From a virus, in the IMG/VR virus record IMGVR_UViG_3300032116_000004, positions 248,001 to 312,000 of that record: a stretch of DNA of 64,000 nucleotides; one strand, written 5' to 3'. Shown here piece after piece: positions 1-61,473 of the stretch (the first letter of the stretch is position 1; every line of letters begins with the position of its first letter). Both the position numbers and the translations under genes were made by a program. The notes beneath the pieces are model-generated. The model saw only the letters and a program-made list of their open reading frames with translations, ran no database searches and was not told the DNA's origin.

Positions 1-804
1 CAGGGCATACCTATTCCCCCCTTGACTCCTAGAGATTGGCAAATCACCCTCGGACAAAAACTGCTACGTATGTTGTCAATACCCGAACTCGATGATGTTT
101 GTGATCTTTACAAAGATCAAGTGGTGAATCCTCACGACAATGATCAAAATTTAAATGATAATCAAAATTTCGATGAGAATTGCACGCTGAATGGTGCCAG
201 TGCCAGCTGCATAGTTCGGGTTGGCAGAGACATATTTTTTGACAATTCAGAATTTTTAAAACCAGAACAGAGTCGATGGATCGTTGAAAATCTACTAGGA
301 CCAGAATATCGTATACACGAAGCTGTCACTGATGGGCACGGGGATGCTGTGTTTGCCATCCTCAAACCTGGAGTTATATTAAGTAGCAAGCACGATAGCA
401 ATTTAGATTTCGGCAGAGATTTTCCCGGTTGGGAAGTGTGCAAGGTTTGGGATAGCTCAATTTGGGCAGCCATGGAGGTTGGCAAGTTCAAAGAAGATAA
501 CTTTAACGGCCGCTGGTATGTGCAAGGTCAAACACCCACCGAAGAATTCACGAAATTCGTAGATGAATATCTCAACAAATGGACGGGATTTGTGAGTGAA
601 ACAGTGTTTGATGTTAACTGTCTGGTGCTAGACGAATCACATGTAATCTTCTCGGCATACAACAAACCAGTATTTGATTTCTGTAAACAGCATAAAATTG
701 AACCTATCATCTCGGAATTGCGTCACAGCTATTTCTGGGATGGGGGTGTTAGCTGTTGCACACAAGACATCCGGCGACGCGGTGGCTTAGAGACTTATCT
801 CTAG
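1..804 (+). CDS. Glycine-amidinotransferase-like enzyme (5' partial)
   Basis: The reading frame is open to the left edge of the window, so the true start lies upstream and the TTG at 22 is probably internal. The visible N-terminus has the PPLTPRDW segment typical of arginine:glycine amidinotransferases. A middle DGHGDAVF block followed by KPGVIL corresponds to the catalytic His region (HxD-A-x-F..PG in the family). The C-terminus, GGVSCCTQDIRRRG then LETYL, closely resembles the active-site Cys loop of the family (GGxxCxTxDxRRRG); the first Cys of the CC pair aligns with the nucleophile. Family members move an amidino group from arginine to an amine through a Cys-amidino intermediate. It is the only plus-strand gene of the island and converges on the carbamoyltransferase, the two stop codons sharing one CTAG. 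The substrate is unknown: glycine, another amine, an aminosugar or a modified base are all possible. Confidence 0.82.
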   Translation, partial: QGIPIPPLTPRDWQITLGQKLLRMLSIPELDDVCDLYKDQVVNPHDNDQNLNDNQNFDENCTLNGASASCIVRVGRDIFFDNSEFLKPEQSRWIVENLLGPEYRIHEAVTDGHGDAVFAILKPGVILSSKHDSNLDFGRDFPGWEVCKVWDSSIWAAMEVGKFKEDNFNGRWYVQGQTPTEEFTKFVDEYLNKWTGFVSETVFDVNCLVLDESHVIFSAYNKPVFDFCKQHKIEPIISELRHSYFWDGGVSCCTQDIRRRGGLETYL

Positions 805-2288
805 TTGCAAACTTTTACACCGTATAGTTTTTCAAACCGATCAGCATCGTCTCTATCATTGACCATAGGCTCACCGCGTATGTTTAGACTGGTGTTAAGC
901 AACATAGGACATCCTGTTTCTACATACCAACGTTCTAACAGTTCTCGTATACCTGACCCACAGTCCTTGCTTACTGTTTGAACACGACTGGTCTTATCTA
1001 CATGTATGATAGCAGGAAAATGATCCGGATGGCGACAACGTGCTACCACTTGCATGTAAGGGCTACTGGTATATCCTTGGGGCATCTCAAAATAATCGTT
1101 GACACATTCTTCTAGTATCACAGGTGCAAACGGTCTAAACTGTTGTCTGCGTTTGATCGCATTGACTTTCTCCTTGATCTCGCTGCCTCTAGGGTCTGCA
1201 AGGAGGCTACGGTTTCCGAGTGCGCGGGGACCGAACTCAGCTCTGCCGGAGGCAACTCCCACAATCTGTTCATTAAGTAGCCGAGCCACAAGCTCATCAA
1301 CAGGATAAGGGCCAGGTATATTATACCCAAGATAAGGACTGGTCCAGTTAACTCTATGCCCATGAGCCAAAGCGGCAGCACCAAGGCTGCTACCAGCATC
1401 ACCAGGATTAGGCATGATCCAAATATTTTCATAGATGTCTCCAAGATTTCTATTGGCTAAACAGTTGAGAGCAACACCTCCCATGTATACAAGATTGGTT
1501 TCGCCTGTGAGTTCGCGAGCTTTTTTCATTACACTCATTATGAGATCTTCAGCCACTAACTGCGTAGCGCACGCAATATCTTCATTGGTAGCCGATTCTA
1601 AAAATGTTGAGTCAACTCCTATATGGAAGTTTTCATTGAGTTCAATGCTGTTGTAGTCTTTGATCACGCGATTGCTCAAGGCTTGGTACCACGTATCTCG
1701 ACCCCAGGCGGCCATGCCCATAGTAATGTATTCTTCGTCCATGGGTTTTAGTCCCACACGATCAGTCATGGCGCTGTAGAATAATCCAATTGAGTGTGGA
1801 TACATTTGGCGCCATAGTCTCTGGTATTGTGCCCGACCCTTGTTGTTGTAACATGCACGATAGATGCTAACAGTATCTAACTCACCAATGGCATCTATAA
1901 CAACAACTACTGCACGGTCAAATGGTGATGTTTGAAAACCTGCGGCTGCATGGCTGAGATGATGGCTGGTGCTGACTTCGTTACGAGCCGGATTTTGATA
2001 CCAAGACCCGAGATGCTTTTTCAATGCACCGCGTGTGGTCCAAGGGCCAAAGTTGCGTTGCCCAGAAAATATCTGCTGTATGTTGTGCATCCATGGATGT
2101 TCATAGAACGCCACTGTATCGTATTCCCACTCACACAGTTCTTTGAGCAGTCCAGGAGCAATAGTAGGATCGTTTTTCTTTTTACTATATCGTTCTGAGT
2201 GGCCGGCAAAAACTATTTCACCATCTGACCTGATGACAGTGGCTGCCGCATCATGGAACCCTGCACTGATACCAAGTATGTGTTTCAT
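801..2288 (-). CDS. Carbamoyltransferase (NodU/CmcH/TobZ family)
   Basis: A 495-residue protein with full-length family architecture. The N-terminal Kae1/YgjD-like ASKHA domain starts MKHILGISAGFHDAAA and carries the metal-binding HHLSHA motif near residues 108-113. GGVALN near 269 and a C-terminal YrdC-like half with GRAEFGPRALGNRS, FRPFAP and LLNTSLN are also present. Such enzymes use carbamoyl phosphate and ATP to make carbamoyl-AMP and transfer the carbamoyl group to a hydroxyl on a sugar, an antibiotic or, in some phages, a hydroxymethylated base. Its ATG overlaps the stop of the 33-residue peptide gene as ATGA, so it is probably translated by coupling from that gene's strong ribosome site. 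It is the last gene of the minus-strand island. The fold assignment is firm; the acceptor is unknown. Confidence 0.93.
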   Translation of the reverse strand: MKHILGISAGFHDAAATVIRSDGEIVFAGHSERYSKKKNDPTIAPGLLKELCEWEYDTVAFYEHPWMHNIQQIFSGQRNFGPWTTRGALKKHLGSWYQNPARNEVSTSHHLSHAAAGFQTSPFDRAVVVVIDAIGELDTVSIYRACYNNKGRAQYQRLWRQMYPHSIGLFYSAMTDRVGLKPMDEEYITMGMAAWGRDTWYQALSNRVIKDYNSIELNENFHIGVDSTFLESATNEDIACATQLVAEDLIMSVMKKARELTGETNLVYMGGVALNCLANRNLGDIYENIWIMPNPGDAGSSLGAAALAHGHRVNWTSPYLGYNIPGPYPVDELVARLLNEQIVGVASGRAEFGPRALGNRSLLADPRGSEIKEKVNAIKRRQQFRPFAPVILEECVNDYFEMPQGYTSSPYMQVVARCRHPDHFPAIIHVDKTSRVQTVSKDCGSGIRELLERWYVETGCPMLLNTSLNIRGEPMVNDRDDADRFEKLYGVKVCN

Positions 2289-2386
2289 TTATAGATAAAC
2301 GGATCTCTTTTGCGTAACTCTTTTAGTTTTTTGCGATAGCGTATTTCAAGTTTGATCCGGTTGATCAAGTTTGTTAACCATTTCAT
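2285..2386 (-). CDS. Small basic peptide (33 aa)
   Basis: A short ORF beginning MKWLTNLINRIKLEIRY and ending RKRDPFIYK. It is preceded by a perfect AGGAGG with a five-base A spacer, the best ribosome site in the island. Twelve of 33 residues are Lys or Arg against three acidic ones. The hydrophobic residues are spaced as in an amphipathic helix. Its first 41 bases lie inside the 3' end of the upstream 374-residue gene in another frame, and its TGA stop overlaps the ATG of the carbamoyltransferase. From memory, near-identical peptides occur in other marine T4-like phages; this needs a search. Function unknown. A structural or membrane-associated helix, a translational-coupling leader, or a modification substrate are all possible. 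Confidence 0.75.
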   Translation of the reverse strand: MKWLTNLINRIKLEIRYRKKLKELRKRDPFIYK

Positions 2387-3470
2387 TTTTTCCTCCTATG
2401 ATTTGTATCTGTCGAGTTTGATAATCAGGATCACTCCAGCAATAGTCATAGACACATTCGGCATCACTGGTTTTAACTCTGTAGACATCTAGATGAGTAT
2501 TTAAACGGCTCCATATGGATTGATAATCATTTGTCCAAAAGGTATCAATGAGATCCACTTGACCGATTTGCGGATGCCCAATAGTTAAACTTTTGTCATT
2601 GGGATCAAATCCATTCACTGTTAGCCATTCACGGAACTCTTGTAATCTTATCTTTTGCCATTCGTAGTTGCCAGGATTGTTAGCCCACTCTATATCAAAG
2701 TCTCCTGCTGCCTCAGTCTGGCTACGCATGGTAGTTGAAATTAACTCACCCACACGACTGTCACGTCCTTCATCCTGGAACACTTCCCAATGATGTTTGC
2801 CCACTGCTTTGTTCACACCTACAAATACTCCGCCTATGGGTCGATTGATAGTTTCTATACCAAACAGCTCGTAGTCTTTTTCGTCTAACACAAATCTTGG
2901 TGCATTAAGCCAACACATCAGTTGACTGGGCCTTTGCCAAGCGGGCGCTTCAATCTGTTTTCGATAACTGAGAGCCCAAGATTCAAATTCGTGACACAAT
3001 AAATTCAATTGCCGGATATGCCAGCGTGTGGCAGCATTAGCTTTTAGATAGTATTCTTTGGGAGAGCCGCTGACACCTTGTAAATCTTCAAAATATCTAT
3101 GCAACCAGTTGAACTTGTCATGTATGATATTGCGACCGGCTGCGCGACCATCTATAGGTGTATCTGTGATACAATTCGCCATATCAAAATAGTCGTCGAT
3201 GTGATAACCAAGATTGGCTTGATTGATTGCCGCTATACTGAGATTGACCTGCTCTAGTATATAGGAACCGTTGCGAGCATGATCGACAAACCCAAAGAAA
3301 CAATAGTTTTTTTCTAGATGATAATCTTTCCGCAATAGATCATTGAGTGCTGACAGCCATTTATGACTGAGAGAGTTATCATAGATGTCCACATATACTG
3401 GCAGTAGATCGCCAGTATGACGATTTTGTAGATCAATCTGCAATCTATCTAATATCTTGCCACCAATCAT
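2346..3470 (-). CDS. Conserved phage-type protein of unknown function
   Basis: A soluble protein of 374 residues from the chosen start (MIGGKILDRLQ). I chose this ATG because AGGA lies five bases upstream and it cuts the overlap with the preceding radical SAM gene to 26 bases; the frame stays open to an ATG at 3521, which would add 17 residues. Visible segments include SHKWLSALNDLLRKDYHLEK with NYCFFGF after it, CITDTPIDGRAAGRN, and a C-terminal part rich in Trp and Tyr. No signal peptide, membrane segment or catalytic motif was recognised. It sits directly downstream of four tandem radical SAM genes, so a partner or substrate role is conceivable. No function can be assigned. Confidence 0.75.
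   Translation of the reverse strand: MIGGKILDRLQIDLQNRHTGDLLPVYVDIYDNSLSHKWLSALNDLLRKDYHLEKNYCFFGFVDHARNGSYILEQVNLSIAAINQANLGYHIDDYFDMANCITDTPIDGRAAGRNIIHDKFNWLHRYFEDLQGVSGSPKEYYLKANAATRWHIRQLNLLCHEFESWALSYRKQIEAPAWQRPSQLMCWLNAPRFVLDEKDYELFGIETINRPIGGVFVGVNKAVGKHHWEVFQDEGRDSRVGELISTTMRSQTEAAGDFDIEWANNPGNYEWQKIRLQEFREWLTVNGFDPNDKSLTIGHPQIGQVDLIDTFWTNDYQSIWSRLNTHLDVYRVKTSDAECVYDYCWSDPDYQTRQIQIIGGKNEMVNKLDQPDQT
2392..2397 (-). promoter_or_regulatory. Consensus Shine-Dalgarno of the 33-aa peptide gene
   Basis: AGGAGG on the minus strand, five bases before the ATG at 2386. Most neighbouring genes start inside the preceding gene with weak or no Shine-Dalgarno, so this full consensus stands out and supports the short ORF being real. 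Confidence 0.8.
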
Positions 3471-4731
3471 ACATGTCCTGATTTTGTTGTAATATATGTG
3501 CCATGGTATATTGATCACCACGTATCTTTTCTAGTTCTAAAATCCTGCGCTTGCCTTTGATCAATCCTGCTTGATATTGATCAGGCCATTGTTCCGCAAA
3601 CGTGGGTCTTTGCTTGAGTTGTAGTAAAACATCTCGTAGTGCGCCACGTGTGGCAGGCACTATCTCATCCACTTTGCGATGTAATATTTCTCTAGGCAAT
3701 GCCAGCGGACTCATTAAAATGTCCGGAGTAAAACTAAACACAACTTTGGCCAAGATGTCAACACCTAGTTCATCGGCTGTGCGTTGCATCGACTCAACTT
3801 CAAACAAACCTGGCAGAGTCAAAGTAAAGTCCAATCGCATCTGTCTGCGATGTCGTGCGATTTCTAGGCCACGTTTAAAGTTTTCTAAAAATACGGGCCA
3901 GGCCAAACCGGTTCTGATGTATTCTCCGATGGGTCCTGTTCCATCGATGCTTGCACAGATTTGGAAGTCTCGTATATTTGCCAGCAAATCACGATAAAGA
4001 CTAATCCCATTATAATCCACGCGGCTAAGGTTGGTATTGTATCTTGCATAAAGTCTTGGGCCATCACCCAGTTCAATGATTCTTTTCATATAGCGCCAAT
4101 GCTGTTCATACATCAGCGGCTCTCCGCCCACCCAATAGATTTCTTCTACACGATGTTCTTCTACTGCTTGAGCAAACTCTGCTTCTACCTGTGTGTCCTG
4201 GAACTGTATGATTTCACGTTTGACATCAGGCCGCATCCAGTTGTTTTTGGGATTTGACCAGTCTACCATGTCGTGTTTTTTCTCTTCAGTTTCCCAAGAG
4301 CTGGAAAGCATGTCTCCGCACATGCGACATTTAAAGTTGCAAAGATTACTAAATCTGTAGTCCCAGCTCACTGGTTTCAGTGTGGTTACACCGTCGGGTG
4401 TGGTGGCTGCCATGGCTTCCTCATACTTGTGACCAAACAGTCCCCAAAAGTAACTGCGATAGACATCTGTATTCAATAACTTCTCATTGCACACCGCACA
4501 CTCTGGCAAGGTCTCTCCGGCCATCATGCGCCGTCTCACAGATTTCATGTGTTCACTGTTCCAATGTTCATCCAGTGTGATGGGAATATAACGTCCGCTG
4601 CCGGCGGCTGTGTCTATATACTGTTCAAAGTTCTGTGCAGGCTCACGACTGGCACAACACATCCTCCTCTCGGTCTGTGGCGAGAGATATGTGTGTGTCC
4701 ACGGAGCCATGCACAGTGTTTCAGACTTCAT
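3445..4731 (-). CDS. Twitch/SPASM-type radical SAM protein A1
   Basis: A 428-residue radical SAM enzyme. Unlike classical SPASM proteins, the auxiliary-cluster-like cysteines lie N-terminal to the core: C7 in CMAPW, C25-C26, then C78-x2-C81. The radical SAM CxxxCxxC is C131-NFK-C135-RM-C138, after DYRFSNL. A GGEPL segment (SAM binding) and an ASIDGTGPIGEYIR strand follow. Proteins like this reductively cleave SAM to a 5'-deoxyadenosyl radical; most known relatives with extra clusters modify peptides or sugars. It overlaps the next gene upstream by 11 bases and ends IRGDQYTMAHIL..WWQDIR, a variant of the R-x-x-x-F....P tail shared by its paralogues. The substrate is unknown. Confidence 0.9.
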   Translation of the reverse strand: MKSETLCMAPWTHTYLSPQTERRMCCASREPAQNFEQYIDTAAGSGRYIPITLDEHWNSEHMKSVRRRMMAGETLPECAVCNEKLLNTDVYRSYFWGLFGHKYEEAMAATTPDGVTTLKPVSWDYRFSNLCNFKCRMCGDMLSSSWETEEKKHDMVDWSNPKNNWMRPDVKREIIQFQDTQVEAEFAQAVEEHRVEEIYWVGGEPLMYEQHWRYMKRIIELGDGPRLYARYNTNLSRVDYNGISLYRDLLANIRDFQICASIDGTGPIGEYIRTGLAWPVFLENFKRGLEIARHRRQMRLDFTLTLPGLFEVESMQRTADELGVDILAKVVFSFTPDILMSPLALPREILHRKVDEIVPATRGALRDVLLQLKQRPTFAEQWPDQYQAGLIKGKRRILELEKIRGDQYTMAHILQQNQDMYDWWQDIR

Positions 4732-5932
4732 AATCTATCACTCGTGCTAACTCCGGCGCTATCTGTGAAAGGTTCTGACGACGCCTTAGATCTAGATCTT
4801 TTATCTTTATCTTCAAAAGATTTCCATCAGTGCTGGCACCATTGATCATGAAATCTACCACGCGATCAAACTCAGATCGGAATGACTCGGGCACCCATTC
4901 ACTTGACAATCTCTGTCGAACTGCCTGTTTAGCACGTTCGGGCAGGTTAGCAATACTGAAATAATAAGGATCATGCAACATGTTCCAGTAGACAAAATCA
5001 AACTTTTGACGATCGATCCATTGTGCCACGTCTGACAGATACATCACGTTGAACGCATTGATGGTGCAACACACCTGTAGAGTGATGTTTGAAATCCTAG
5101 ATCTCATCTGTCGGAACAGTTCGATATTGTGATTGATTTCCGACCAGCCAGCATTGCTACGTTGATATTCAAATCTCTCACCTACGTCATCCACAGAAAA
5201 AGCGATTTCAACATGCCGGAAATGGCACCAGATGTCTTCGGCTTCTTCGGGATATTGTGTGCCGTTGGTGTTGTAGTGTATTTCAATTTGATGAGCATAT
5301 CCACGGTCTACCAGGCGGCGCAGTAGATCAAAATGCTCTCGGATCATGAAAGGTTCGCCACCAGTGAACTCAATGTATCGGACTTGGGCCATGGCCGAAT
5401 CCAGTTCGTGCCAAAACTGCTCGCTGTTGCGCGGCCATGCTCCATCACGTAACATTTGATAATGGAAACTTTTCTTTTTATCTTCTCTATCAACAATAAA
5501 GTTCAACTCTTCTGAAGCAAAAGTCGACGAAGACCATGAACCACAGATGCGGCATTTGAGATTACAGATATTACCTAATTTGAGATCCAAAAACATCAAA
5601 GGTTTAGCATCTGCTGTCCAATTGTCAGAAATGCCCATATGTTTGAGCCTATCTAGAGTATGCATCCTTTTACTGGTACGACCGGCACGTTCTTCTTGCC
5701 AACATCTACGACAGGTCTGTGGTTGCTGGCCATCTAAAAACTGCTGACGCAGATTTTTTAGATGTTGGCTGTTCTGTATCTGGTCAAAGGTAGAGTTTGT
5801 AAGTTGGAATTTTTTCCCTTGATCATCTACTATCTCGTCCATGGCCAAACAGCAAGGTCTCACTGTGCCTATGGGACTGGTTTCTAAGCTAACCCACGGT
5901 AACACACAGAATTTCTCGTGTGGTATTTTCAT
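4721..5932 (-). CDS. Twitch/SPASM-type radical SAM protein A2
   Basis: 403 residues with the same layout as its neighbours. C9 lies in FCVLPW, C27-C28 in RPCC, and a CRRCWQEE pair near residue 75; the radical SAM motif CNLKCRIC is near residues 122-129 after LDLKLGNI. GGEPF and a FSVDDVGERFEYQR segment follow. The C-terminus reads LRRRQNLSQIAPELARV, a form of the tail motif also seen in A3. It overlaps A1 by 11 bases and A3 by four (ATGA-type), implying co-expression and translational coupling. Of the tandem four it most resembles the rSAM between gp47 and gp46 (both have LDLKxxN and FSxDxVGxxFExQR). The substrate is unknown. Confidence 0.9.
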   Translation of the reverse strand: MKIPHEKFCVLPWVSLETSPIGTVRPCCLAMDEIVDDQGKKFQLTNSTFDQIQNSQHLKNLRQQFLDGQQPQTCRRCWQEERAGRTSKRMHTLDRLKHMGISDNWTADAKPLMFLDLKLGNICNLKCRICGSWSSSTFASEELNFIVDREDKKKSFHYQMLRDGAWPRNSEQFWHELDSAMAQVRYIEFTGGEPFMIREHFDLLRRLVDRGYAHQIEIHYNTNGTQYPEEAEDIWCHFRHVEIAFSVDDVGERFEYQRSNAGWSEINHNIELFRQMRSRISNITLQVCCTINAFNVMYLSDVAQWIDRQKFDFVYWNMLHDPYYFSIANLPERAKQAVRQRLSSEWVPESFRSEFDRVVDFMINGASTDGNLLKIKIKDLDLRRRQNLSQIAPELARVIDYEV

Positions 5933-7197
5933 TGCAAGGCCTCCAGTTCGGGTATCACAGACAGCAGATTCTGTCCGCGGATGGCGTCTAGTTCGTGAGT
6001 CTTGCGCCAGAATACCTCCAGTAATTGAGTGTTATCTGACCCCATCATAAAATTGATAGCCGATTCAAAACCCACCGTGGCACGTTGCAAAGGATCTTGT
6101 GTTCTCAACCAATCAAGGTGCTCTTCAAAGCGTATCCTTAGACGTTGTTTGTATTTCATAGGTGCTATGTCTATTCTATAGTGTGCTGGATCTTGCAAGA
6201 TATTGACATTGAGATCCTGCGCACGTATCAGTCCTTGCTCTACCCAAGATTTATGAAAATCAGGTAGATGCCATGCGTTCATGATACTCAGCGTAGGAGA
6301 AATATAGAAATCTACGTTGGGGCAGATATCTATCATCCTACGACGATTATCTTCTACTGTGTTCCAATTGGTACCATTGCGTATGTATTCAGCACGCAAG
6401 TCCATGGCATCCAGGCTGGCTCCTACTGCTACACTCTTAAACTTTTTCCAATAGTCAAACACATATCGATCTTTGAGTTTGACTTGCGTGAAGTTTGTAT
6501 TGTAGATCAGGCGCACATCAAATCGTTCTCTGCGTTCTAATTCTTCCAGGATGCGATAGTGCTCATCCATCATCAGAGGCTCGCCACCTGCAAAATATAT
6601 CTGCTCTACATAATCAATATGCGGTAACAATTGGTTCCACATATCTTCGGGATCGCGACCTGCAATGTTCAAAGGTCTATTGTGTTTGGCCCATTCAGGA
6701 CCGGCTAACTTGATCTGATCTTGATACCATGAACTGGAAAAGATATGCCCACAACTGCGACAACTGAGATTGCAAAGATTACTGAAACGTATATCCCAAT
6801 AAGTCATCTCAAACGGATTGCTTTCTAATTTCTTGATGTGATGACCGTGATGTTTGTTGGCTGATCTCCGACCTGAAAAAAATCCCGATTCCTCTTGTTC
6901 ATAGCATCGACCACAGGCCGGGTTGGGCCGTTCGGCTAACATGTCTTCTCGCAACTGTGTCATGGACGGACCTTGCCAAATTTCGGCCAAGGTATTCTTT
7001 CTGCAATCGCCCACTGGGTATCGCATCTCTGCATGACAGCAAGGATAGGCTTCACCTGTGGGATAAGCATGCAGGTGTATCCAAGGATAGATACAGAATG
7101 TTTTGCTGTCTTTCAGCAGAAATTGTTCGCGATCGTTGAGATCCGTTGGTCGGACTAAATCTGCGGAATTATATTGATATTGTGTCATACCACTCAC
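5929..7197 (-). CDS. Twitch/SPASM-type radical SAM protein A3
   Basis: 422 residues. A roughly 30-residue leader precedes FCIYPW; then come YPCCHAE, a CGRCYEQEE pair, and the core CNLSCRSC near residues 140-148 after YWDIRFSNL. GGEPLM and ASLDAMDLRAEYIRNGTNW follow. The C-terminus LDAIRGQNLLSVIPELEAL is the clearest example of the shared tail. A second in-frame ATG lies three codons after the first, so the start is uncertain by a few residues; the chosen one gives a 29-base overlap with the upstream gene. It is predicted to bind a SAM-cleaving [4Fe-4S] cluster plus at least one auxiliary cluster. The target is unknown. Confidence 0.9.
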   Translation of the reverse strand: MSGMTQYQYNSADLVRPTDLNDREQFLLKDSKTFCIYPWIHLHAYPTGEAYPCCHAEMRYPVGDCRKNTLAEIWQGPSMTQLREDMLAERPNPACGRCYEQEESGFFSGRRSANKHHGHHIKKLESNPFEMTYWDIRFSNLCNLSCRSCGHIFSSSWYQDQIKLAGPEWAKHNRPLNIAGRDPEDMWNQLLPHIDYVEQIYFAGGEPLMMDEHYRILEELERRERFDVRLIYNTNFTQVKLKDRYVFDYWKKFKSVAVGASLDAMDLRAEYIRNGTNWNTVEDNRRRMIDICPNVDFYISPTLSIMNAWHLPDFHKSWVEQGLIRAQDLNVNILQDPAHYRIDIAPMKYKQRLRIRFEEHLDWLRTQDPLQRATVGFESAINFMMGSDNTQLLEVFWRKTHELDAIRGQNLLSVIPELEALQ

Positions 7198-8527
7198 TCA
7201 ATGCAGGAAAAGTCCTGCGGAAATTTTTGCCACGGCGCCGATCATATTGCTCGTAAAATTGTTTAAAATCGTTGTGCAATCGCGGCATATCAAATGCATC
7301 TGAATGCGGAGTCTTGACCACGTCAAGATAATCTATCAATCGTTGCATGTGATTGCGTTCGTGTTCATGCATCATGACATTGTCAGTCCAGCGATCTAAC
7401 CAGGCCTGCAATCGATCTCTATGACGCATACGGATGTGATCAGGCAAAACCAGTGGTGATTGGAAACTGGGAAATCTCAGGATGTTCAGCGTGAAGTTAG
7501 GAAAGTCCGAACCATGGTCCTGTTTCCATAACATGAGATAGGTCAGGAACTCTGGCAGGCTTTCCAGGCACAAGGCATTAATGGTACACATCACATGCAA
7601 GCCTCGCAGTTTTTTACTCTGCATGATGCGTTCCATGTTGTCGGTCCACTGTCCATAGTTCAAACCATCGCGGATATATTCAGCATGAGGACCGATGCTC
7701 TCATTGGAAGTATACAGATCCAGTTCTACATCTTCGCAGGCATTGATAGCACGTTCTATCACATCATATTCCATGCCAAGATTTGAGTTGATGGCCAGGC
7801 GTGTTTGCGAACGTCCGCGATTTTGTTGGAACCAATCCAACAACTTCCAGGTATATCCGCTCATCAGTGGTTCACCACCGGTGATGCGCAGTTCTTTCAG
7901 TGTTCTATGTAGGTCTGATTCCCACCACTGGAAAAATGCGTCCACATAAGGATTCCGATCATTGAATGTATACAACTGACTGCTGTCATGAGCGTGAGTG
8001 AAATGATTACGACCATCTGATACCAGGCCGGTGTAAGCACCGTGTTGTTTAATATCCCGAACCCATGTAGAACTAAAAGCAGGATTGCAATAAGAACAAG
8101 CGAACTGGCAAGTCCTATCAAAGGCGATTTCCAAGGTTTGTAAATCCACGTCTTGGTCCGCTGGAGTATGGTATGCATCATCAAGGTCCTCGTCTGAATA
8201 TATCACTGTCTTATACACACGGTCGCTGACGTTGTCTCGACCTATGTCTTCAATCTTCCAGCAGTATTCGCACCCTTGTGGGCGCTCGCCGCGTTGCATC
8301 ATGCCTCGTTCGGATTTTTTTTTGGCAGTATTGTGCAAGGCTTTGGGATTGGCTTCTGCATCTTCTACGCTGACTTTGTGAGGCAGCGGGTGATGGCAAC
8401 TGGTAGTCATGCCGGAGCCTAGCCAAATAGTAGCGTTATACCATTTGGCTCCACAAAAACTATCGGATTTGATATCGATCACCCGACGTTTGTATTCAAT
8501 ATCTGTTTCGTTGTCTTTACGTGGCAT
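7169..8527 (-). CDS. Twitch/SPASM-type radical SAM protein B1
   Basis: 452 residues, belonging to a second subfamily together with the gene at 13891-15339. The N-terminal Cys block differs: SFCGAKW, then TTSCHHPLPHK instead of a CC pair, then CEYCWKIED. The radical SAM motif CQFACSYC is near residues 138-146, followed by NPAFSSTW, ITGGEPLMSG and a long middle region. The C-terminus has YDRRRGKNFRRTFPALSEWY. The His-rich TSCHHP segment may supply different ligands for an auxiliary cluster; this is inference. It starts 11 bases inside the upstream TEKTxKP gene. The role is as unknown as for the A-type paralogues, but the distinct N-terminus suggests a different substrate. Confidence 0.88.
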   Translation of the reverse strand: MPRKDNETDIEYKRRVIDIKSDSFCGAKWYNATIWLGSGMTTSCHHPLPHKVSVEDAEANPKALHNTAKKKSERGMMQRGERPQGCEYCWKIEDIGRDNVSDRVYKTVIYSDEDLDDAYHTPADQDVDLQTLEIAFDRTCQFACSYCNPAFSSTWVRDIKQHGAYTGLVSDGRNHFTHAHDSSQLYTFNDRNPYVDAFFQWWESDLHRTLKELRITGGEPLMSGYTWKLLDWFQQNRGRSQTRLAINSNLGMEYDVIERAINACEDVELDLYTSNESIGPHAEYIRDGLNYGQWTDNMERIMQSKKLRGLHVMCTINALCLESLPEFLTYLMLWKQDHGSDFPNFTLNILRFPSFQSPLVLPDHIRMRHRDRLQAWLDRWTDNVMMHEHERNHMQRLIDYLDVVKTPHSDAFDMPRLHNDFKQFYEQYDRRRGKNFRRTFPALSEWYDTISI

Positions 8528-9536
8528 GCATGAACTTTTGGAATTTTACAGTAAATGTTTTCTGTTGGTTAGTATGTAGTTCTTGGGCGTGCTGTTGGTT
8601 ATATAAACAGATGTCTCGTGTTTCGATCCAAAATTGGTCTAGATCTTGATCGCATAACCACTGGACTTCTTGTATCAATCTGTCCAGTCTCCCCTTACCA
8701 TCTATTATAGTATCAAACGATTCATCGATCAACGATCCGAATGTTCTAAATCCCATGCGATGTAGGTCTCGATAGAATCCCATGTTGGCACAAATAACAA
8801 AAGGATGTGCCGCTAATATTGGCTTGTAGGTTTTCTCTGTGCGGAAACTGTGCGGATATTCAAACACAGTTTCACTGACTACGCTGAAGTAAGTGTCATT
8901 GAACTGTGGTGCATAGATCACGCCATCTAACCATGATGGTTCTGGTTGAATTTCATACCGTGATGGCAAAGATTTTTCGGATAAATCCATATGCTCAACA
9001 TAGACTCTGTTGAAATCTCTATGCCCCCATGTATCATAGTTCTCTAGACAAGACCACAATGCTCGATCCAACAATCCAAAAAATTTCAATTTGGCGATCA
9101 AGTATTTCCTATGCGGACGCAGTTTTCGATTGGTAAAAAGAAATTTATAAGGTCGAGTAACCTGTTGGCTTAATACCAGGTTGGTTTCTTGGCTGCCGAT
9201 AGTGGCCCGTAAAAAATGCTCGTTGTTGAGATTTTGTATATCCGGATCAGAATCACCGCCTGTTATCCATCTAAGAGATCCTCTTTGGAACCATGTATAG
9301 TAGAGATGATGTTTGACTATGTGCCACTGAGTGGCCACTGATTCATCTGTTTTTTCTACAGCGATAGTGCTGCCATTTTCCAAACTCTTGATCACCAACT
9401 CTGGTCGCATAACCAGAGTCTTCAAGGATATAGCATAACACCCTTGTCGATCACTTAGATAGTCAACAACGATGTCATCTGCTGTATCGAGATACCCAAG
9501 TGGCAGTCCAGGCTCAACAATAATATTACCATTCAT
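8517..9536 (-). CDS. Fucosyltransferase-like TEKTxKP family protein 1
   Basis: 339 residues. The C-terminal third contains SVVSETVFEYPHSFRTEKTY then KPILAAHPFV (TEKT near residue 232), followed by GFYRDLHRMGFRTFGSLIDESFD. The order SE...TEK..kpi...PFv resembles the nucleotide-binding end of GT10 (alpha-1,3-fucosyltransferase-like) enzymes, where a yvTEK...al..g.vPV segment binds the GDP-sugar. Two paralogues lie at 9889 and 15323. The N-terminal two thirds are poorly conserved between them, as expected for acceptor-binding domains. It overlaps the cupin gene by four bases and sits beside GDP-sugar synthesis genes, which fits a GDP-sugar donor. The family resemblance is by eye, so glycosyltransferase is a reasoned guess. 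Confidence 0.62.
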   Translation of the reverse strand: MNGNIIVEPGLPLGYLDTADDIVVDYLSDRQGCYAISLKTLVMRPELVIKSLENGSTIAVEKTDESVATQWHIVKHHLYYTWFQRGSLRWITGGDSDPDIQNLNNEHFLRATIGSQETNLVLSQQVTRPYKFLFTNRKLRPHRKYLIAKLKFFGLLDRALWSCLENYDTWGHRDFNRVYVEHMDLSEKSLPSRYEIQPEPSWLDGVIYAPQFNDTYFSVVSETVFEYPHSFRTEKTYKPILAAHPFVICANMGFYRDLHRMGFRTFGSLIDESFDTIIDGKGRLDRLIQEVQWLCDQDLDQFWIETRDICLYNQQHAQELHTNQQKTFTVKFQKFMHAT

Positions 9537-9892
9537 GCCTGATTATCGCCTGGAACGATTCTATAATTGTCTTCCACAGAATCTGGTGTGCTGACTTCTA
9601 TGATTGTTCCTGCTTCAATACAGATCAACTGATGAGGCTGGCAAGGTGGATTGTGCCAAGTTGCCCCTTCATTTAATTCTTTTTCATGAGATTCAGCGGT
9701 ATCAGTATCTATCCAACGAATTAGAAATTTGCCATTTTGGACATACCAAGTTTCATCTTTGTCTCGATGGAAATGCATACTGAAGCGGGCACCGGTCTCA
9801 AAATTTAAAAACTTTGCACAATATTGGTTATTAGTTGCCCAAATAAATTCAGATCCCCATTTTTTAGGAACCAGTCCTGTCAATCTGGTCAT
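9533..9892 (-). CDS. Cupin-domain protein (ManC/PMI C-terminal type)
   Basis: A single-domain cupin of 119 residues. It begins with a KKWGSEFIW segment like the KPWG opening of type II phosphomannose isomerase cupins. Cupin motif 1 gives metal ligands H40, H42 and E47 (FSMHFHRDKDETWYVQNG), and motif 2 has H87 in PCQPHQL. Such domains either isomerise or epimerise sugars or regulate sugar-nucleotide synthesis. The gene is wedged with four-base overlaps between two TEKTxKP genes, next to fcl-, kinase- and gmd-like genes, so it most likely acts in supplying the GDP-sugar donor. Length and motifs fit a ManC-like cupin better than a longer RmlC-type 3,5-epimerase, but an epimerase role is not excluded. 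Confidence 0.78.
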   Translation of the reverse strand: MTRLTGLVPKKWGSEFIWATNNQYCAKFLNFETGARFSMHFHRDKDETWYVQNGKFLIRWIDTDTAESHEKELNEGATWHNPPCQPHQLICIEAGTIIEVSTPDSVEDNYRIVPGDNQA

Positions 9893-10944
9893 GATTCAAA
9901 TACATGATGCATTTTGTGATATTGTTCACGACTAAACTCAATGAACCTTTCACGGTTATAGCGAAGATCGGGCAACATATCTTGATAGATGTCTTCGATC
10001 TCTGACAGAGTCATATCGCATAACCAATGTAATACACTCATCACACTACCATGCTGGTCCTCTGAGGTTTCTATATCAACATGTGGCCAATAATGGTTAA
10101 ATGTTTTAAATCCTCGATTACGCAACCATGGATATATCCTAGTCTGCCCATGTATGACAAAAGGTCTTAATCCAATCATTGGTTTCCATGTTTTCTCAGT
10201 TACAAACAAGGGATGCCAATTGTTAAACTCTGTTTCGCTGACCACATGTAAAAAATGATTTTTCCACACAGTTAGAGGACCTAGTCCAAACAAATCGCAA
10301 GGAATTCCACCACAGTCATCCTCTGTAATAAAATCATCTAAGTTCTCACCCAATGTTATGTTAGGGCCCATCATACCATCAGCATAGATATCTGCATGTT
10401 CTTTTGATCCGCCACCTAAAGTAATGATTCCCCTACGATCAAGACGAGATGCCAATATAAGATTAGTGAGCTCCACACGGTGTAGTCTTGGTTTGCGTTG
10501 TAGACAAACGAATACGTGTTTAACTGATTGAAGGCTGATTTGATCCAAAGTGGGTATGGTCATTAACTTATAGGCGGCTGCCGCGTGCCAATTCCATTGA
10601 TACTTTTGATTTTCCCATGTGCCGATGCGTATTACTTTCTCGCACTTGATTTGATTGATAATACTATCTATTAGATCTTCGCGCAGATACACAGGATCGA
10701 TTGTAGATAACAAAAACAAATTGTCAAATTTAGCGCAATCTTTGTAGATCAATTTTTCTAACTTTTGCCATTGTCCGTTATCAAACTGAGGACCAAACCA
10801 AGTCATATTCAATAATAAATTCTTTTCATCTTTGAACTTAGACTCAATTTGTTCTGCAGTCTTTTGCAATACTTCTCGTTCCAAAGGCCCATAGTGATAA
10901 GCAAGTGGGAACGTGGTTCCAATAACAGTTATCATGATAGACAA
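9889..10944 (-). CDS. Fucosyltransferase-like TEKTxKP family protein 2
   Basis: 351 residues and the second paralogue. The C-terminal block reads FLHVVSETEFNNWHPLFVTE then KTWKPMIGLRPFVI (TEKT near residue 250), followed by YPWLRNRGFKTFNHYW. The N-terminal half is unrelated by eye to paralogue 1 and includes NLFLLSTIDPVYLREDLI and HVFVCLQRKPRLHRVELTNL, the latter with the look of a GT10-type mid-domain. It overlaps the cupin gene by four bases and fcl by 13, so it sits inside the GDP-sugar block. The prediction is transfer of a sugar from GDP to an unknown acceptor in the host cytoplasm, by family resemblance only. Confidence 0.62.
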   Translation of the reverse strand: MSIMITVIGTTFPLAYHYGPLEREVLQKTAEQIESKFKDEKNLLLNMTWFGPQFDNGQWQKLEKLIYKDCAKFDNLFLLSTIDPVYLREDLIDSIINQIKCEKVIRIGTWENQKYQWNWHAAAAYKLMTIPTLDQISLQSVKHVFVCLQRKPRLHRVELTNLILASRLDRRGIITLGGGSKEHADIYADGMMGPNITLGENLDDFITEDDCGGIPCDLFGLGPLTVWKNHFLHVVSETEFNNWHPLFVTEKTWKPMIGLRPFVIHGQTRIYPWLRNRGFKTFNHYWPHVDIETSEDQHGSVMSVLHWLCDMTLSEIEDIYQDMLPDLRYNRERFIEFSREQYHKMHHVFES

Positions 10945-11867
10945 TTTTGTTTATACCATTGGATTGTGATATCTATACCCTGTGATAAATTATATTTTGG
11001 TTGCCACCCCATGGATTTTATTTTACTGTTGTCTAAAGTTCTAACAATAGTAGCTGTTGGTTTTGTGATATCCCATTGTATATCCCCTGCAAAACCAGAT
11101 AAGTGCTTTACTAGATCGGCGGCAGTCTTAAGGTTAACTGGATTACCGGCAGAAAGATTTATTGGCTCACTGGCAGAATAATTTTGCATACAAAAAATAC
11201 AAGCGTCGGCAGCGTCGTCCACAAACATAAAATCTCTTACCTGACTTCCATCTCCCCAAAGAGATACTGCGGCGTCTTGACGTTTGACAGCATTGACAAA
11301 TTTGCTTATAAAATCACTCATGACATGAGATTTGACATTATCAAAAGTATCGTTAGGCCCGTAAAGGTTACCGGGCATCACTGTGATAAAATCACATCCC
11401 CATTGTTTTCTAAAATACTGAGCCATTTTGATCCCAGCAATTTTTGCCACGGCGTAGGCTTCGCTAATTGGTTCTAAATATCCAGATAAAAGTTGATCTT
11501 CAGTGATAGGTATTTGACAGTCTTTGGGATAGGCAGAACTACTACCAGTAAACAAAAGTTTTTTACACTGATATTTGCGAGACACATCAAAAACATTGTT
11601 TTGTATTTCTAAGTTATACAGCATTGTTTCTCCCCAATCCTGACTCAAAAGTCCTATCAACTTAGCCGCTACTAAAAATACATACTCTGGCCTATGCCGA
11701 TTGAACCAAGCATCGACCTGTGTTTTATTTCTCAGATCTAATTCTTCGGGACTAGGATATAGTATGTTAGTATATCCTTGTGATCGTAATTGTCTCACTA
11801 TAGCCGATCCAAGGTGTCCACGAAATCCACCTGCTACAAATATTTTAGACTGTTTTTCCATGTTCAT
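10932..11867 (-). CDS. fcl: GDP-L-fucose synthase-like epimerase/reductase
   Basis: 311 residues, an extended short-chain dehydrogenase. The Rossmann motif GFRGHLG spans residues 14-20 and the catalytic pair is Y138-x3-K142 (EAYAVAK). EPEELDL-like and MPGNLYGPNDTF segments are diagnostic of the GDP-fucose synthase (Fcl/WcaG) family. The family turns GDP-4-keto-6-deoxymannose into GDP-fucose by 3,5-epimerisation and NADPH reduction. Here the conserved GSSCIYP segment reads GSSSAYP, so the Cys that serves in epimerisation in E. coli Fcl is Ser, while a downstream SHVM His is kept. It may therefore act mainly as a reductase or make a different deoxysugar. Four-base overlap with the kinase gene indicates coupling. 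Alternative: the reductase of a GDP-6-deoxyheptose route. Confidence 0.85.
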   Translation of the reverse strand: MNMEKQSKIFVAGGFRGHLGSAIVRQLRSQGYTNILYPSPEELDLRNKTQVDAWFNRHRPEYVFLVAAKLIGLLSQDWGETMLYNLEIQNNVFDVSRKYQCKKLLFTGSSSAYPKDCQIPITEDQLLSGYLEPISEAYAVAKIAGIKMAQYFRKQWGCDFITVMPGNLYGPNDTFDNVKSHVMSDFISKFVNAVKRQDAAVSLWGDGSQVRDFMFVDDAADACIFCMQNYSASEPINLSAGNPVNLKTAADLVKHLSGFAGDIQWDITKPTATIVRTLDNSKIKSMGWQPKYNLSQGIDITIQWYKQNCLS

Positions 11868-12859
11868 CTGTCCTGATTGTCGTAATAAATTATCTGACTA
11901 CCTAGATATTCAAATAAAATTGGCACACTGGTCAATCCTAGTGCCTCTTCAACTTTTTGTTTGGCATCCAGCGGTGTGACAAAAAGCATAAATCCACCAC
12001 CGCCTGCCCCCAACAACTTACCTCCCAGAGCTCCTGCTGTTAGAGCACGATCATATATTTCATCAATTTTCTGATTGGTCGATTCGGGCTGTATTGCCTT
12101 TTTTAGAATCCATTGTTCGTTTAGAGCCTCGGCAAAGTCTGTCAGTCTGTTTTGATTTGCATCAAACAATATACTCTGCGCTCGATCAGTTAAAGCATTC
12201 ATATCCTGCAATTTTTTTTCTTGTTGCCCAAGTAAAGCAATAGTTTTTTTCGCTAACTGACCGCTCTCTCTGCAATCTTGTGTATGAAACATCTGCATTG
12301 ATGATTCCAATTCTCGGTGTATGCCAGAATCAAGTATCAAGGGATTGACCGTAAAATCTTGATGTCCACCAAAATTGATTTTATTGAAACCACCAAATGC
12401 GGCGGCCACCTGATCTTGGCTACCCACATCTTGTTTCAAAACTTTCTGCTCGATATACAAGGCATCTAATGCTAACTGACGTTTAGTCTTGAGTTGATTA
12501 GTCAAGGTATAGAGACCGTGTAGAAGACCTACTGTGAAACTACTGCTAGAACCTATGCCTGTGCGATTAGGCAAATCTCCGTGATGTGTAATATCGATAC
12601 CAAAATCAATATTACAAAACTTCAAACATTCTCTGATCACAGGAATAGATATTTCATCTATGGAATTGGTTTCTTGTACCTCATAATATCTTATGCGATA
12701 TTTGTAATCAAACACTTGAGGCAATTTCCTAATAACAATAAAACTATATTTGTTAATAGTGGTGCTGATTACTGATCCCGGATGATACTCATACCAATCT
12801 GGATAGTCGGTCATGCCTCCGAAAAAACTTACTCTATAAGGAGTTCTAACTATGATCAT
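11864..12859 (-). CDS. GHMP-family sugar kinase (HddA-like)
   Basis: 331 residues with all three GHMP signatures. Motif 1 is RTPYRVSFFGGMTDYP at the N-terminus, motif 2 is LPNRTGIGSSSSFTVGLL (ATP phosphate loop), and motif 3 is LLGAGGGGFMLF near the C-terminus. The closest pattern I know is D-glycero-D-manno-heptose-7-phosphate kinase (HddA) and related sugar-1-kinases of polysaccharide clusters. It would phosphorylate the anomeric carbon of a sugar before guanylyl transfer. No guanylyltransferase was found in the window, so a host enzyme or a gene outside would be needed. It overlaps its neighbours by four bases on both sides and is markedly AT-rich compared with the radical SAM genes. Confidence 0.85.
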   Translation of the reverse strand: MIIVRTPYRVSFFGGMTDYPDWYEYHPGSVISTTINKYSFIVIRKLPQVFDYKYRIRYYEVQETNSIDEISIPVIRECLKFCNIDFGIDITHHGDLPNRTGIGSSSSFTVGLLHGLYTLTNQLKTKRQLALDALYIEQKVLKQDVGSQDQVAAAFGGFNKINFGGHQDFTVNPLILDSGIHRELESSMQMFHTQDCRESGQLAKKTIALLGQQEKKLQDMNALTDRAQSILFDANQNRLTDFAEALNEQWILKKAIQPESTNQKIDEIYDRALTAGALGGKLLGAGGGGFMLFVTPLDAKQKVEEALGLTSVPILFEYLGSQIIYYDNQDR

Positions 12860-17196: not shown

Positions 17197-17530
17197 TGGT
17201 CACGGTTACTTTCCAAAATTTCTTTTGAGTATAGGTGGTTGGCACAACGATACAAACATCGTCGGCATGGCAAGCATATTCGCCATGATCTGCTGGTGCC
17301 AATCGCCAACTGCTCTGTTGTGTTATTTTAATCAATTTTCCATCGCGCACTTTGAGATCCATGCGCACTTGTTCAAAGGTATGACGATCCACTACAATGT
17401 ATGTGCCAGGAAGATCTTCCATGGAATAGCAAGTGATGGTTCCGGAATCGTCATAGTAGATGCGGAATTCGGCTCGATTTTCGGGCACGGTCCAATCATG
17501 CTGTGTGGCGGCTTGCCAAAAGGCATCCAT
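17183..17530 (-). CDS. Unknown protein between glycosyltransferase genes
   Basis: 115 residues beginning MDAFWQAATQHDWTVPENRA. GAGGAG lies four bases before the ATG, a strong ribosome site that fixes the start even though the gene begins 35 bases inside the preceding one. It contains FRIYYDDSGTITCYSMEDLP, TYIVVDRHTF and a C-terminal YACHADDVCIVVP. The first half looks like a small beta-rich domain (two hairpins). Not recognised as any named family. Its fixed place between two GT-like genes suggests an accessory or scaffold role in the same process. Confidence 0.7.
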   Translation of the reverse strand: MDAFWQAATQHDWTVPENRAEFRIYYDDSGTITCYSMEDLPGTYIVVDRHTFEQVRMDLKVRDGKLIKITQQSSWRLAPADHGEYACHADDVCIVVPTTYTQKKFWKVTVTNEES

Positions 17531-50594: not shown

Positions 50595-50595
50595 C

Positions 50596-53099: not shown

Positions 53100-53108
53100 A
53101 ATATAAAA

Positions 53109-61466: not shown

Positions 61467-61473
61467 TAACACT

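What the first reader, a model, noticed from the sequence alone, without database searches (positions are those of the whole stretch)
3445..8527. Four tandem twitch radical SAM genes, eight radical SAM loci in the window
Seen: CxxxCxxC cores at 3445, 4721, 5929, 7169, 13891, 49446, 51609 and 54869, seven of them with an N-terminal auxiliary Cys set (CxxPW or CxAKW, CC or C-H-rich, CxxC). Known: radical SAM enzymes with auxiliary clusters often modify peptides or sugars. Eight in 64 kb is exceptional, and their overlaps imply joint expression. Divergence between them suggests different substrates or successive steps.
Basis: partly seen in the sequence, partly recalled or inferred. Interest (0 to 1): 0.75.

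Follow-up and report, generated by a model that had tools for sequence, protein, structure and literature searches.

The report
Probable phage radical-SAM glycan cassette
A giant virus of bacteria carries a conserved run of five radical-chemistry enzymes inside a cluster of sugar-modifying genes, and it most likely uses them to rework sugars on a surface glycan; viruses with many such enzymes were known, but not this conserved line-up.

Summary
All eight CxxxCxxC cores exist. Seven carry an N-terminal four-Cys auxiliary set and pass NCBIfam NF033640, N_Twi_rSAM. The window is part of a 315,778-base T4-like phage record with 14 radical SAM matches, 12 of them N_Twi. The eighth (R8) is different: a 207-aa core whose relatives have an overlapping Cys-rich ORF behind them in 76 of 76 loci examined, apparently a two-gene enzyme.

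R1-R4 plus R5 are the conserved core of a cassette in 80 kept viral loci (R3 80, R2 79, R4 78, R5 75, R1 73; misses are mostly cut loci). They are under purifying selection, with cluster Cys kept in all orthologues but for two R5 positions at 58 of 59. Around them lie a NodU/TobZ carbamoyltransferase, an amidinotransferase, sugar epimerases and a variable family of probable glycosyltransferases. Two of five bacterial relatives found sit in O-polysaccharide export operons; one gene there is fused to Wzt.

Best reading: sequential radical tailoring of a glycan (0.55). Substrate and destination are not shown. Multi-radical-SAM phages are already in print: a new variant of a known kind.

The parts
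1..804 (+). C-terminal part of an amidinotransferase-family protein (full ORF G000:C1:247749-248804, 351 aa; window = C1:248001-312000)
   Evidence: phmmer: arginine:glycine amidinotransferase E=1.1e-15, SxtG 6e-11, inosamine-phosphate amidinotransferase 8e-10; no Pfam match; next to NodU on the opposite strand in 34 of 55 relatives with at least 800 bases beyond NodU
801..2288 (-). NodU/TobZ-type O-carbamoyltransferase
   Evidence: PF16861 174 bits, PF02543 120 bits; decarbamoylnovobiocin carbamoyltransferase 3.7e-52, TobZ 4e-34
2346..3470 (-). hyp391 (374 aa from ATG at 3470): conserved protein of unknown function; predicted fold contains a cyclophilin-like barrel with a helical insert
   Evidence: 73 of 80 loci; model pLDDT 87, pTM 0.86; best VIA-align Z 9.2 to cyclophilin A, rmsd 3.2 over 141 residues; no Foldseek PDB hit at E<=0.001
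3445..4731 (-). R1, N-twitch radical SAM
   Evidence: NF033640 284 bits; 7 cluster Cys conserved in 54 of 54 distinct orthologues
4721..5932 (-). R2, N-twitch radical SAM
   Evidence: NF033640 343 bits; N-terminal SPASM PF13186 29.6 bits; cluster Cys 58 of 58
5929..7197 (-). R3, N-twitch radical SAM
   Evidence: NF033640 391 bits; SPASM 47.2 bits; cluster Cys 63 of 63; 173 viral stretches encode relatives, best 80 kept
7169..8527 (-). R4, N-twitch radical SAM of the CxAKW/SCH subtype
   Evidence: NF033640 297 bits; cluster Cys 61 of 61
8517..9536 (-). GTa, member of the variable probable glycosyltransferase family (GTx)
   Evidence: 113 family ORFs in 65 of the 80 loci; 11 matches in 10 frames of the record; no Pfam family matches more than 2 of 40 members: the glycosyltransferase label is inference
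9533..9892 (-). cupin
   Evidence: PF07883 28.3 bits
9889..10944 (-). GTb, GTx family
   Evidence: matched by the family profile, of which it is a row
10932..11867 (-). NAD-dependent sugar epimerase (fcl-like)
   Evidence: PF01370 1.4e-48
11864..12859 (-). GHMP-family sugar kinase
   Evidence: PF00288 and PF08544 above cut-off
12856..13869 (-). GDP-mannose 4,6-dehydratase-like
   Evidence: PF16363 4e-73; best bacterial relatives 74% identical
13891..15339 (-). R5, N-twitch radical SAM, CxAKW subtype
   Evidence: NF033640 306 bits; cluster Cys 58 or 59 of 59
15323..16273 (-). GTc, GTx family
   Evidence: matched by the family profile, of which it is a row
16267..17196 (-). hyp309, conserved cassette gene, probable GT-A glycosyltransferase (read from sequence)
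   Evidence: 50 of 80 loci at 69-78% identity over more than 70% of its length; no Pfam family
17496..18335 (-). hyp279, probable glycosyltransferase (read from sequence)
   Evidence: 42 of 80 loci; no Pfam
18319..19197 (-). hyp292, probable glycosyltransferase (read from sequence)
   Evidence: 32 of 80 loci; no Pfam
49446..50594 (+). R6, accessory N-twitch radical SAM
   Evidence: NF033640 212 bits; 17 loci
51609..53099 (+). R7, accessory N-twitch radical SAM with about 130 extra N-terminal residues
   Evidence: NF033640 276 bits from residue 130; 9 loci; groups with R2
54869..55492 (+). R8, short radical SAM core without auxiliary Cys
   Evidence: 100 viral stretches encode relatives, best 80 kept; family median 208 aa, range 204-393
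55482..55802 (+). R8 partner: 106-aa Cys-rich ORF, proposed separate auxiliary-cluster subunit, start overlaps R8 by 11 bases
   Evidence: such an ORF found in 76 of 76 R8 loci examined, of 80 fetched; C41, C61, C82, C87 invariant and C90 95% in 77 sequences; SPASM homology not shown

Best explanation
R1-R5 are five distinct radical SAM enzymes whose twitch (auxiliary Fe-S) domain lies before, not after, the core. They work as successive tailoring steps of a phage-encoded glycan pathway. Probable glycosyltransferases, variable between phages, join sugar units. The conserved enzymes then alter them: C-H abstraction by the radical SAMs (epimerisation or dehydrogenation are the likeliest chemistries), O-carbamoylation by the NodU-type enzyme, and, where present, amination and guanidino transfer. 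The product would be a diversified surface glycan, on the virion (the cassette adjoins genes that I read as tail-fibre-like) or on the host envelope.

Shown: gene content, order, conservation, motif integrity, purifying selection, bacterial contexts. Inferred: catalysis, substrate class, reaction types, destination.
For: The order hyp309-(GTx)-R5-(GTx)-R4-R3-R2-(GTx)-R1-hyp391-NodU recurs in the 80 loci, allowing for cut ends. GTx genes and nucleotide-sugar genes vary between them. Representatives of the variable genes include GDP-mannose dehydratase, epimerases, UDP-glucose dehydrogenase, a DegT aminotransferase, GDSL hydrolases and methyltransferases (59 of 62 representatives scanned).

Left of the window the same record adds a DegT aminotransferase, an epimerase and three more GTx genes.

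Independent lineages: Vibrio phage K566 interleaves N-twitch genes with two Pfam GT8 genes. Marine virus AG-345-D19 has an amidinotransferase-like gene, two genes that I read as SGNH-like, NodU and an N-twitch gene in a row.

Bacteria: of five genomes found with the family, two have it between Wzm/Wzt-type transporter genes and a WbsX-type gene, and in one of them a single ORF joins ABC_tran, Wzt_C, SPASM and Radical_SAM.

Cluster Cys kept in 54 to 63 distinct orthologues per gene; dN/dS medians 0.08-0.10. Each of the five also keeps at least one Cys outside the cluster motifs (R1 C259, R2 C288, R3 C292, R4 C320 in all; R5 C278 in 58 of 59), as expected if some donate an H atom.
Against: No substrate is identified. 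GTx, hyp309, hyp279 and hyp292 match no Pfam family, so their glycosyltransferase role is my reading. hyp391, as widely kept as R1, looks cyclophilin-like, which hints at a protein substrate or partner. Six of the twelve N-twitch genes of the record (R6, R7 and four scattered ones) stand beside genes that I read as replication, recombination, protease or cofactor genes, not in a glycan cluster. One of five bacterial loci (L216) shows no glycan cluster, and L212 and L217 are glycan contexts only by my reading. KVP40 has N-twitch-like genes (below cut-off) near a QueC-like gene. The Wzt fusion is one ORF in one genome. GDP-sugar genes occur in only 5 of 80 loci; the amidinotransferase is absent in 21 of 55.
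Confidence: 0.55

Rival explanations
1. The cassette modifies a protein or peptide: R1-R5 alter residues of a virion protein (tail fibre) or a ribosomal peptide, and the sugar enzymes decorate the same protein.
For: Several SPASM/twitch enzymes of known function act on peptides (PMC6231123, passages). hyp391 beside R1 has a cyclophilin-like barrel, best Z 9.2, ten listed rows at Z 8.0 or more. ORFs that I read as tail-fibre-like lie just upstream, and relatives of one are seen there in some loci.
Against: Two of five bacterial loci are Wzm/Wzt polysaccharide operons and one gene there is fused to Wzt. The overlapping operon leaves little room for a precursor gene, but I made no RRE or precursor search. 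The cyclophilin match is by fold only, with no Foldseek hit at E<=0.001.
Confidence: 0.2
2. The radical SAM genes are accessory host-takeover or fitness genes that multiply in the genome and act in unrelated pathways; their clustering has little meaning.
For: 14 matches spread over the record, several beside genes that I read as replication or protease genes; R6 and R7 have few relatives; the CP220 authors call their radical SAM region an interchangeable module, likely non-essential, perhaps useful at low oxygen (PMC2853527, passages).
Against: R1-R5 order and content are kept in 73-80 of 80 loci under purifying selection; orthologue groups are monophyletic.
Confidence: 0.15
3. The enzymes hypermodify phage DNA, as radical SAM and sugar enzymes do in some phages (recalled).
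For: T4-like phages can carry glycosylated DNA (recalled); KVP40 N-twitch-like genes lie near a QueC-like gene; R6 and R7 flank genes that I read as recombination nucleases.
Against: Cassette genes are nucleotide-sugar and small-molecule tailoring enzymes; two of five bacterial loci are polysaccharide export operons; I recognised no DNA-base pathway gene in the cassette.
Confidence: 0.06

Closest known systems
NCBIfam NF033640 N_Twi_rSAM (twitch domain-containing radical SAM protein)
   Same: R1-R7 and five scattered copies pass its cut-off
   Different: I found no paper naming the family or a reaction for it. Here it forms a conserved five-gene set inside a sugar-gene cassette.
Campylobacter phages CP220/CPt10
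   Same: 11 and 12 radical SAM proteins, radical SAM clusters with a putative glycine amidinotransferase (PMC2853527, passages); the group is distantly T4-like (PMC3322345, passage)
   Different: CP220 has 7 weak NF033640 matches, none over the cut-off: other kinds of radical SAM. Its authors suggest a benefit at low oxygen.
T4-like TARA_ERS488813_N000010 and Aeromonas phage 332-Vera
   Same: 12 and 8 radical SAM genes (PMC5332604 and PMC12390700, one passage each); Vera's lie in a cluster of structural and tail-fibre genes
   Different: Those passages propose no specific pathway. I did not test whether theirs are N-twitch.
Cyanophage LPS clusters (P-SSM2, S-SSM7, S-SM2)
   Same: Large LPS gene clusters, and carbamoyltransferases, in T4-like cyanophages (PMC3037559, passages); polymorphic glycosyltransferase clusters proposed to diversify O-antigen (PMC7824862, passages)
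   Different: 'Radical SAM' does not occur in the main text of either paper.
BtrN, butirosin twitch dehydrogenase
   Same: Four Cys for one auxiliary cluster (PMC6231123, passages); its residues 166-239 align to our N-terminal profile positions 11-80 (E=0.03)
   Different: The order is swapped: twitch after the core in BtrN, before it here. The match is weak.

Membership tests
NF033640 N_Twi_rSAM | whole-protein score over 170 bits | tested here: met
   R1-R7 score 212-391 bits; R8 fails at 29.4
Radical SAM superfamily | CxxxCxxC plus GGE motif, conserved | tested here: met
   eight cores; core Cys and G-G-E invariant in 12 paralogues; core Cys in all 54-63 orthologues of each of R1-R5
Radical SAM superfamily | Pfam PF04055 gathering score 29.5 | tested here: inconclusive
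   R1 31.9, R2 43.5, R6 41.4, R7 39.1 pass; R3 26.2, R4 21.7, R5 21.5, R8 28.3 fall short
SPASM/twitch domain PF13186 | gathering score 21.5 and Cys set | tested here: inconclusive
   R2, R3, R6, R7 pass, R1 19.7 just below, R4 and R5 no match; the four auxiliary Cys are present in all seven
SPASM/twitch radical SAM enzymes of the usual order (BtrN, SkfB, anSME) | auxiliary domain C-terminal to the core | tested here: not met
   SPASM matches lie N-terminal to Radical_SAM in R1, R2, R3, R6, R7 and in the four bacterial relatives scanned
SPASM/twitch radical SAM enzymes | an auxiliary Fe-S cluster actually bound | not testable with these tools
   needs purified protein and EPR or Moessbauer
RiPP maturases | precursor peptide and RRE domain | not tested
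   no precursor or RRE search was made
Prokaryotic viperin (for R8) | NF038283 score over 180 | tested here: not met
   56.7 bits
NodU/TobZ carbamoyltransferase | both Pfam domains over cut-off | tested here: met
   PF16861 174, PF02543 120 bits
Amidinotransferase family (AGAT/StrB) | sequence relationship to solved members | tested here: met
   E=1.1e-15 to arginine:glycine amidinotransferase; no Pfam match
Amidinotransferase family (AGAT/StrB) | catalytic residues | tested here: inconclusive
   a C-terminal Cys aligns with one in the AG-345-D19 relative; its catalytic role is recalled, other residues not mapped
Cyclophilin (hyp391) | cyclophilin fold and active-site residues | tested here: inconclusive
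   Z up to 9.2 but no Foldseek support; active-site residues not mapped

The most novel reading that the evidence does not exclude
A widespread clade of T4-like jumbo phages carries a fixed line of five permuted-twitch radical SAM enzymes that, with an amidinotransferase, an aminotransferase and an O-carbamoyltransferase, builds a guanidinylated and carbamoylated glycan by chemistry like that of aminoglycoside antibiotics. The glycan armours the virion or reseals the host surface, and a cyclophilin-like protein is an integral part of the machine.
Probability: 0.25. Interest if true: 0.82.

Novelty: new variant of a known kind. Interest (0 to 1): 0.6.

Why it matters
Phages with eight to twelve radical SAM genes were called highly unusual in 2010 and again in 2025, and the passages I saw give no established role. 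A conserved five-enzyme set fixed beside sugar-tailoring genes gives a defined, testable target: which sugar is changed, and where it ends up. It would show that oxygen-sensitive radical chemistry is used by viruses to diversify surface glycans. It also points to a large enzyme family: 5 to 12 members over the cut-off per phage in 14 related records (my count), against 5 genomes with the family in 1,452 sampled Pseudomonadota (draws may overlap). The permuted domain order and the apparently split R8 enzyme bear on how auxiliary clusters are wired to radical SAM cores.

Tried and rejected
The second and last job went to hyp391.

First tree contained bact_G106_4 read out of frame; rejected and rebuilt after also dropping 12 rows (near-duplicates and long-branch radical SAM rows from the 80 loci; 83 rows became 71). 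Long branches remain (S2, S3, S5, K566, KVP40), so their placement is unsure.

Viperin for R8: rejected, far under cut-off. CP220 as a carrier of the family: rejected. Frameshifting to fuse R8 with its partner: considered. Of 76, 60 have a TTG and 16 an ATG start near the R8 stop, and 69 have an SD-like triplet before it (no chance control, and such triplets are common), which favours a coupled second gene; frameshifting is not excluded. The R8 loci were 80; 4 were left out because their R8 ORF was outside 190-230 aa. SPASM homology of the R8 partner: not shown by Pfam, PDB profile or hhalign, and its profile found no match in longer phage radical SAM ORFs; it rests on Cys spacing alone.

hyp391 relatives outside the clade: BFVD gives 10 phage proteins at E<=0.001, all named uncharacterised; none by sequence in Atu_ph07, K566, KVP40 or CP220 or in INPHARED. 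Atu_ph07 has one weak NF033640 match. T4 late-promoter octamer: 0 in the window, 1.4 expected by chance. R8 in INPHARED: none. Porin as a host clue: the genome-contig scan gave no relative. 16 bacterial genomes carrying gmd relatives: 0 N_Twi at E<=1e-20. Paper searches that gave no function for N-twitch enzymes.

Full report
What is there. The window is bases 248,001-312,000 of a 315,778-base virus record. The ORF at 61471-63255 is 51-53% identical to annotated portal genes of jumbo phages such as PA5oct and Atu_ph07, and its more distant matches are largely phages of hosts such as Escherichia, Synechococcus and Klebsiella, which I take for T4-like. All eight CxxxCxxC cores are real and are the only ones in open stretches of 100 aa or more. 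R1-R7 pass NF033640; R8 does not. The whole record has 14 radical SAM matches (8 over the Pfam cut-off), and 12 NF033640 matches over that family's cut-off, so the eight in the window are part of a genome-wide expansion.

Anatomy of the enzymes. In 12 paralogues the invariant residues include the three core Cys, G-G-E and four N-terminal Cys (C35, C54, C95, C98 in R3 numbering). Pfam SPASM matches this N-terminal part in R2, R3, R6 and R7 over cut-off and in R1 just below it, and in the four bacterial relatives scanned. A weak PDB match aligns it with residues 166-239 of BtrN, behind that enzyme's core (E=0.03). R4 and R5 form a subtype with CxAKW and no Pfam SPASM match. Across 54, 58, 63, 61 and 59 distinct orthologues of R1-R5 the seven cluster Cys are kept in all, except that two positions in R5 are 58 of 59. 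Each enzyme also keeps at least one Cys outside the motifs.

One cassette, not four genes. R3 was used to fetch relatives: 173 stretches encode one, and the best 80 were kept. In those 80 loci full-length orthologues number R3 80, R2 79, R4 78, R5 75, R1 73, hyp391 73 and NodU 60. The loci lacking R1, R2 or R4 are all shorter than a full locus; two of the five lacking R5 (L077, L078) hold a partial R5. The order hyp309-R5-R4-R3-R2-R1-hyp391-NodU recurs with changing insertions. Median dN/dS is 0.08 to 0.10 for R1-R5, 0.12 for hyp391 and 0.13 for NodU, from pairs at 3-25% nucleotide divergence; median dS is 0.8-1.5, so many pairs are near saturation. In the tree (window plus five or six relatives) R1 to R5 are each monophyletic; R4 and R5 join the scattered copies S1 and S4, R2 joins R7, and R1 and R3 join one bacterial sequence. 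The duplications that made the five are thus older than the split of these relatives.

The surroundings are sugar genes. In the window: NodU/TobZ carbamoyltransferase, cupin, epimerase, GHMP kinase and GDP-mannose dehydratase. Just left of it: an amidinotransferase running into the window, a DegT aminotransferase and another epimerase. A family I call GTx (R143, E234, K235 invariant in 40 members) supplies 113 ORFs in 65 loci and 11 matches in this record. It has no Pfam or PDB family, so its glycosyltransferase label is my inference from motif and context. Of 59 representatives of the variable genes (62 listed), Pfam names nucleotide-sugar enzymes, an aminotransferase, GDSL hydrolases, methyltransferases and more radical SAMs; many have no name. 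In several relatives R5 carries an extra N-terminal domain (ORFs of 638-649 aa) with a P-loop-like start that I read as sulfotransferase-like; Pfam does not name it.

The association recurs elsewhere. Vibrio phage K566 has four N-twitch genes interleaved with two Pfam GT8 genes and a GT4-like gene below cut-off; two of the four pass the NF033640 cut-off. Marine virus AG-345-D19, a 7,955-base record, shows an amidinotransferase-like gene (E=4e-46 to ours), a sulfotransferase-like gene (Pfam below cut-off), two genes that I read as SGNH-like, NodU and an N-twitch gene. Among sampled Pseudomonadota the family is rare: 2 of 398, 1 of 300, 1 of 369 and 1 of 385 genomes at E<=1e-25 (draws may overlap, and only the best four or five candidates per genome were scored, so these are lower bounds). 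Of these five, two (L211, L213) have Wzt genes, a second transporter gene and a WbsX-type gene around the N-twitch genes; in L211 one ORF joins ABC_tran, Wzt_C, SPASM and Radical_SAM (the WbsX and membrane genes of L213 are my reading). Two are near sugar-like genes by my reading (L212, L217), and one has no glycan cluster (L216).

hyp391. This gene is as widely kept as R1 and has no sequence relatives in INPHARED or PDB. Its model is good (pLDDT 87). VIA-align lists ten rows at Z 8.0-9.2 (eight by the tool's own first count). Seven of the first fourteen rows are titled cyclophilin or peptidyl-prolyl isomerase; the others are chains of large complexes, some of which I recall to be cyclophilins. 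The next row falls to 5.9. The tool warns that Z near 8 can be a common arrangement, and Foldseek found nothing at E<=0.001. I hold a cyclophilin-like barrel with a helical insert as likely but unproven. It is the main hint that a protein may be involved.

R8. This gene differs from the rest: 100 viral stretches encode relatives, the best 80 kept, with a median of 208 aa, short for a full enzyme. In 76 of 76 loci examined (80 fetched) an overlapping Cys-rich ORF of about 102 aa follows. Its C41, C61, C82 and C87 are invariant and C90 is 95%. Its spacing resembles a twitch domain, but homology was not shown. I propose a naturally split radical SAM enzyme, core and cluster subunit on separate chains.

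Mechanism. Most likely the GTx and other transferases build a glycan, and R1-R5 abstract hydrogen atoms from its sugars in sequence, with the twitch cluster passing electrons. Epimerisation and dehydrogenation are known chemistries of such enzymes on sugars and cyclitols (BtrN, a dehydrogenase; epimerases recalled). NodU adds carbamoyl groups and the amidinotransferase would add guanidino groups. I recognised no export genes in the window ORF lists by eye, so the product would be made on virion proteins or be passed to host export. Gene content and conservation are shown; every reaction step is inferred.

Against what is known. High radical SAM numbers in phages are in print: CP220/CPt10 with 11 and 12 and an amidinotransferase per cluster (passages), a T4-like ocean phage with 12 (one passage), Aeromonas phage 332-Vera with 8 among structural genes (one passage). 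Phage LPS clusters are also in print (passages). The conserved N-twitch quintet within such a cluster, the permuted domain order there, and the link to Wzt were not found in my searches. The library holds open-licence papers only.

Noticed in passing
L109 7845-8984 and 9005-9943 (G000:C1:231344-233442): The phage record carries a Gram-negative porin (Porin_4, 133 bits) and a TctC-like periplasmic receptor (23.8 bits, below cut-off), downstream of another radical SAM gene. By recall these resemble Burkholderiales proteins, a host hint; a genome scan with the porin found no relative.
   Followed up: partly
window 54869-55802: R8 plus an overlapping Cys-rich ORF: an apparently split radical SAM enzyme, seen in 76 of 76 viral loci examined; the gene before it is often one that I read as UvsX or gp46.
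   Followed up: yes
window 49446-55492: R6, R7 and R8 alternate with genes that I read as gp47 and gp46 recombination nucleases, with overlaps or gaps of a few bases; R6 and R7 have few relatives.
   Followed up: partly
L053 3626-5575, L060 3690-5618, L086 3615-5564: In several relatives R5 is fused to an N-terminal domain of about 170 aa with a P-loop-like start (YPGxGGNRY), which also occurs as a separate ORF in other loci.
   Followed up: partly
L211 8579-11143: Bacterial ORF joining a Wzt ATPase, Wzt_C, SPASM and radical SAM domains; three more N-twitch genes lie next to it.
   Followed up: yes
L104, L105, L106, L107, L108: Five further N-twitch genes of the record lie beside genes that I read as UvsX, UvsW, ClpP, NAD synthetase and a clamp-loader region; genes that I read as SGNH-like are near two of them.
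   Followed up: partly
L211 4235-5959, L212 7421-9199: Two bacterial N-twitch proteins have over 150 extra residues inserted after the core motif, read as a beta-rich domain; no Pfam name.
   Followed up: no
L045 514-1434 and similar ORFs in 9 loci: A family of ORFs of which one representative matches TctC sits inside the sugar cassette of some relatives; the assignment to this family is my reading.
   Followed up: no
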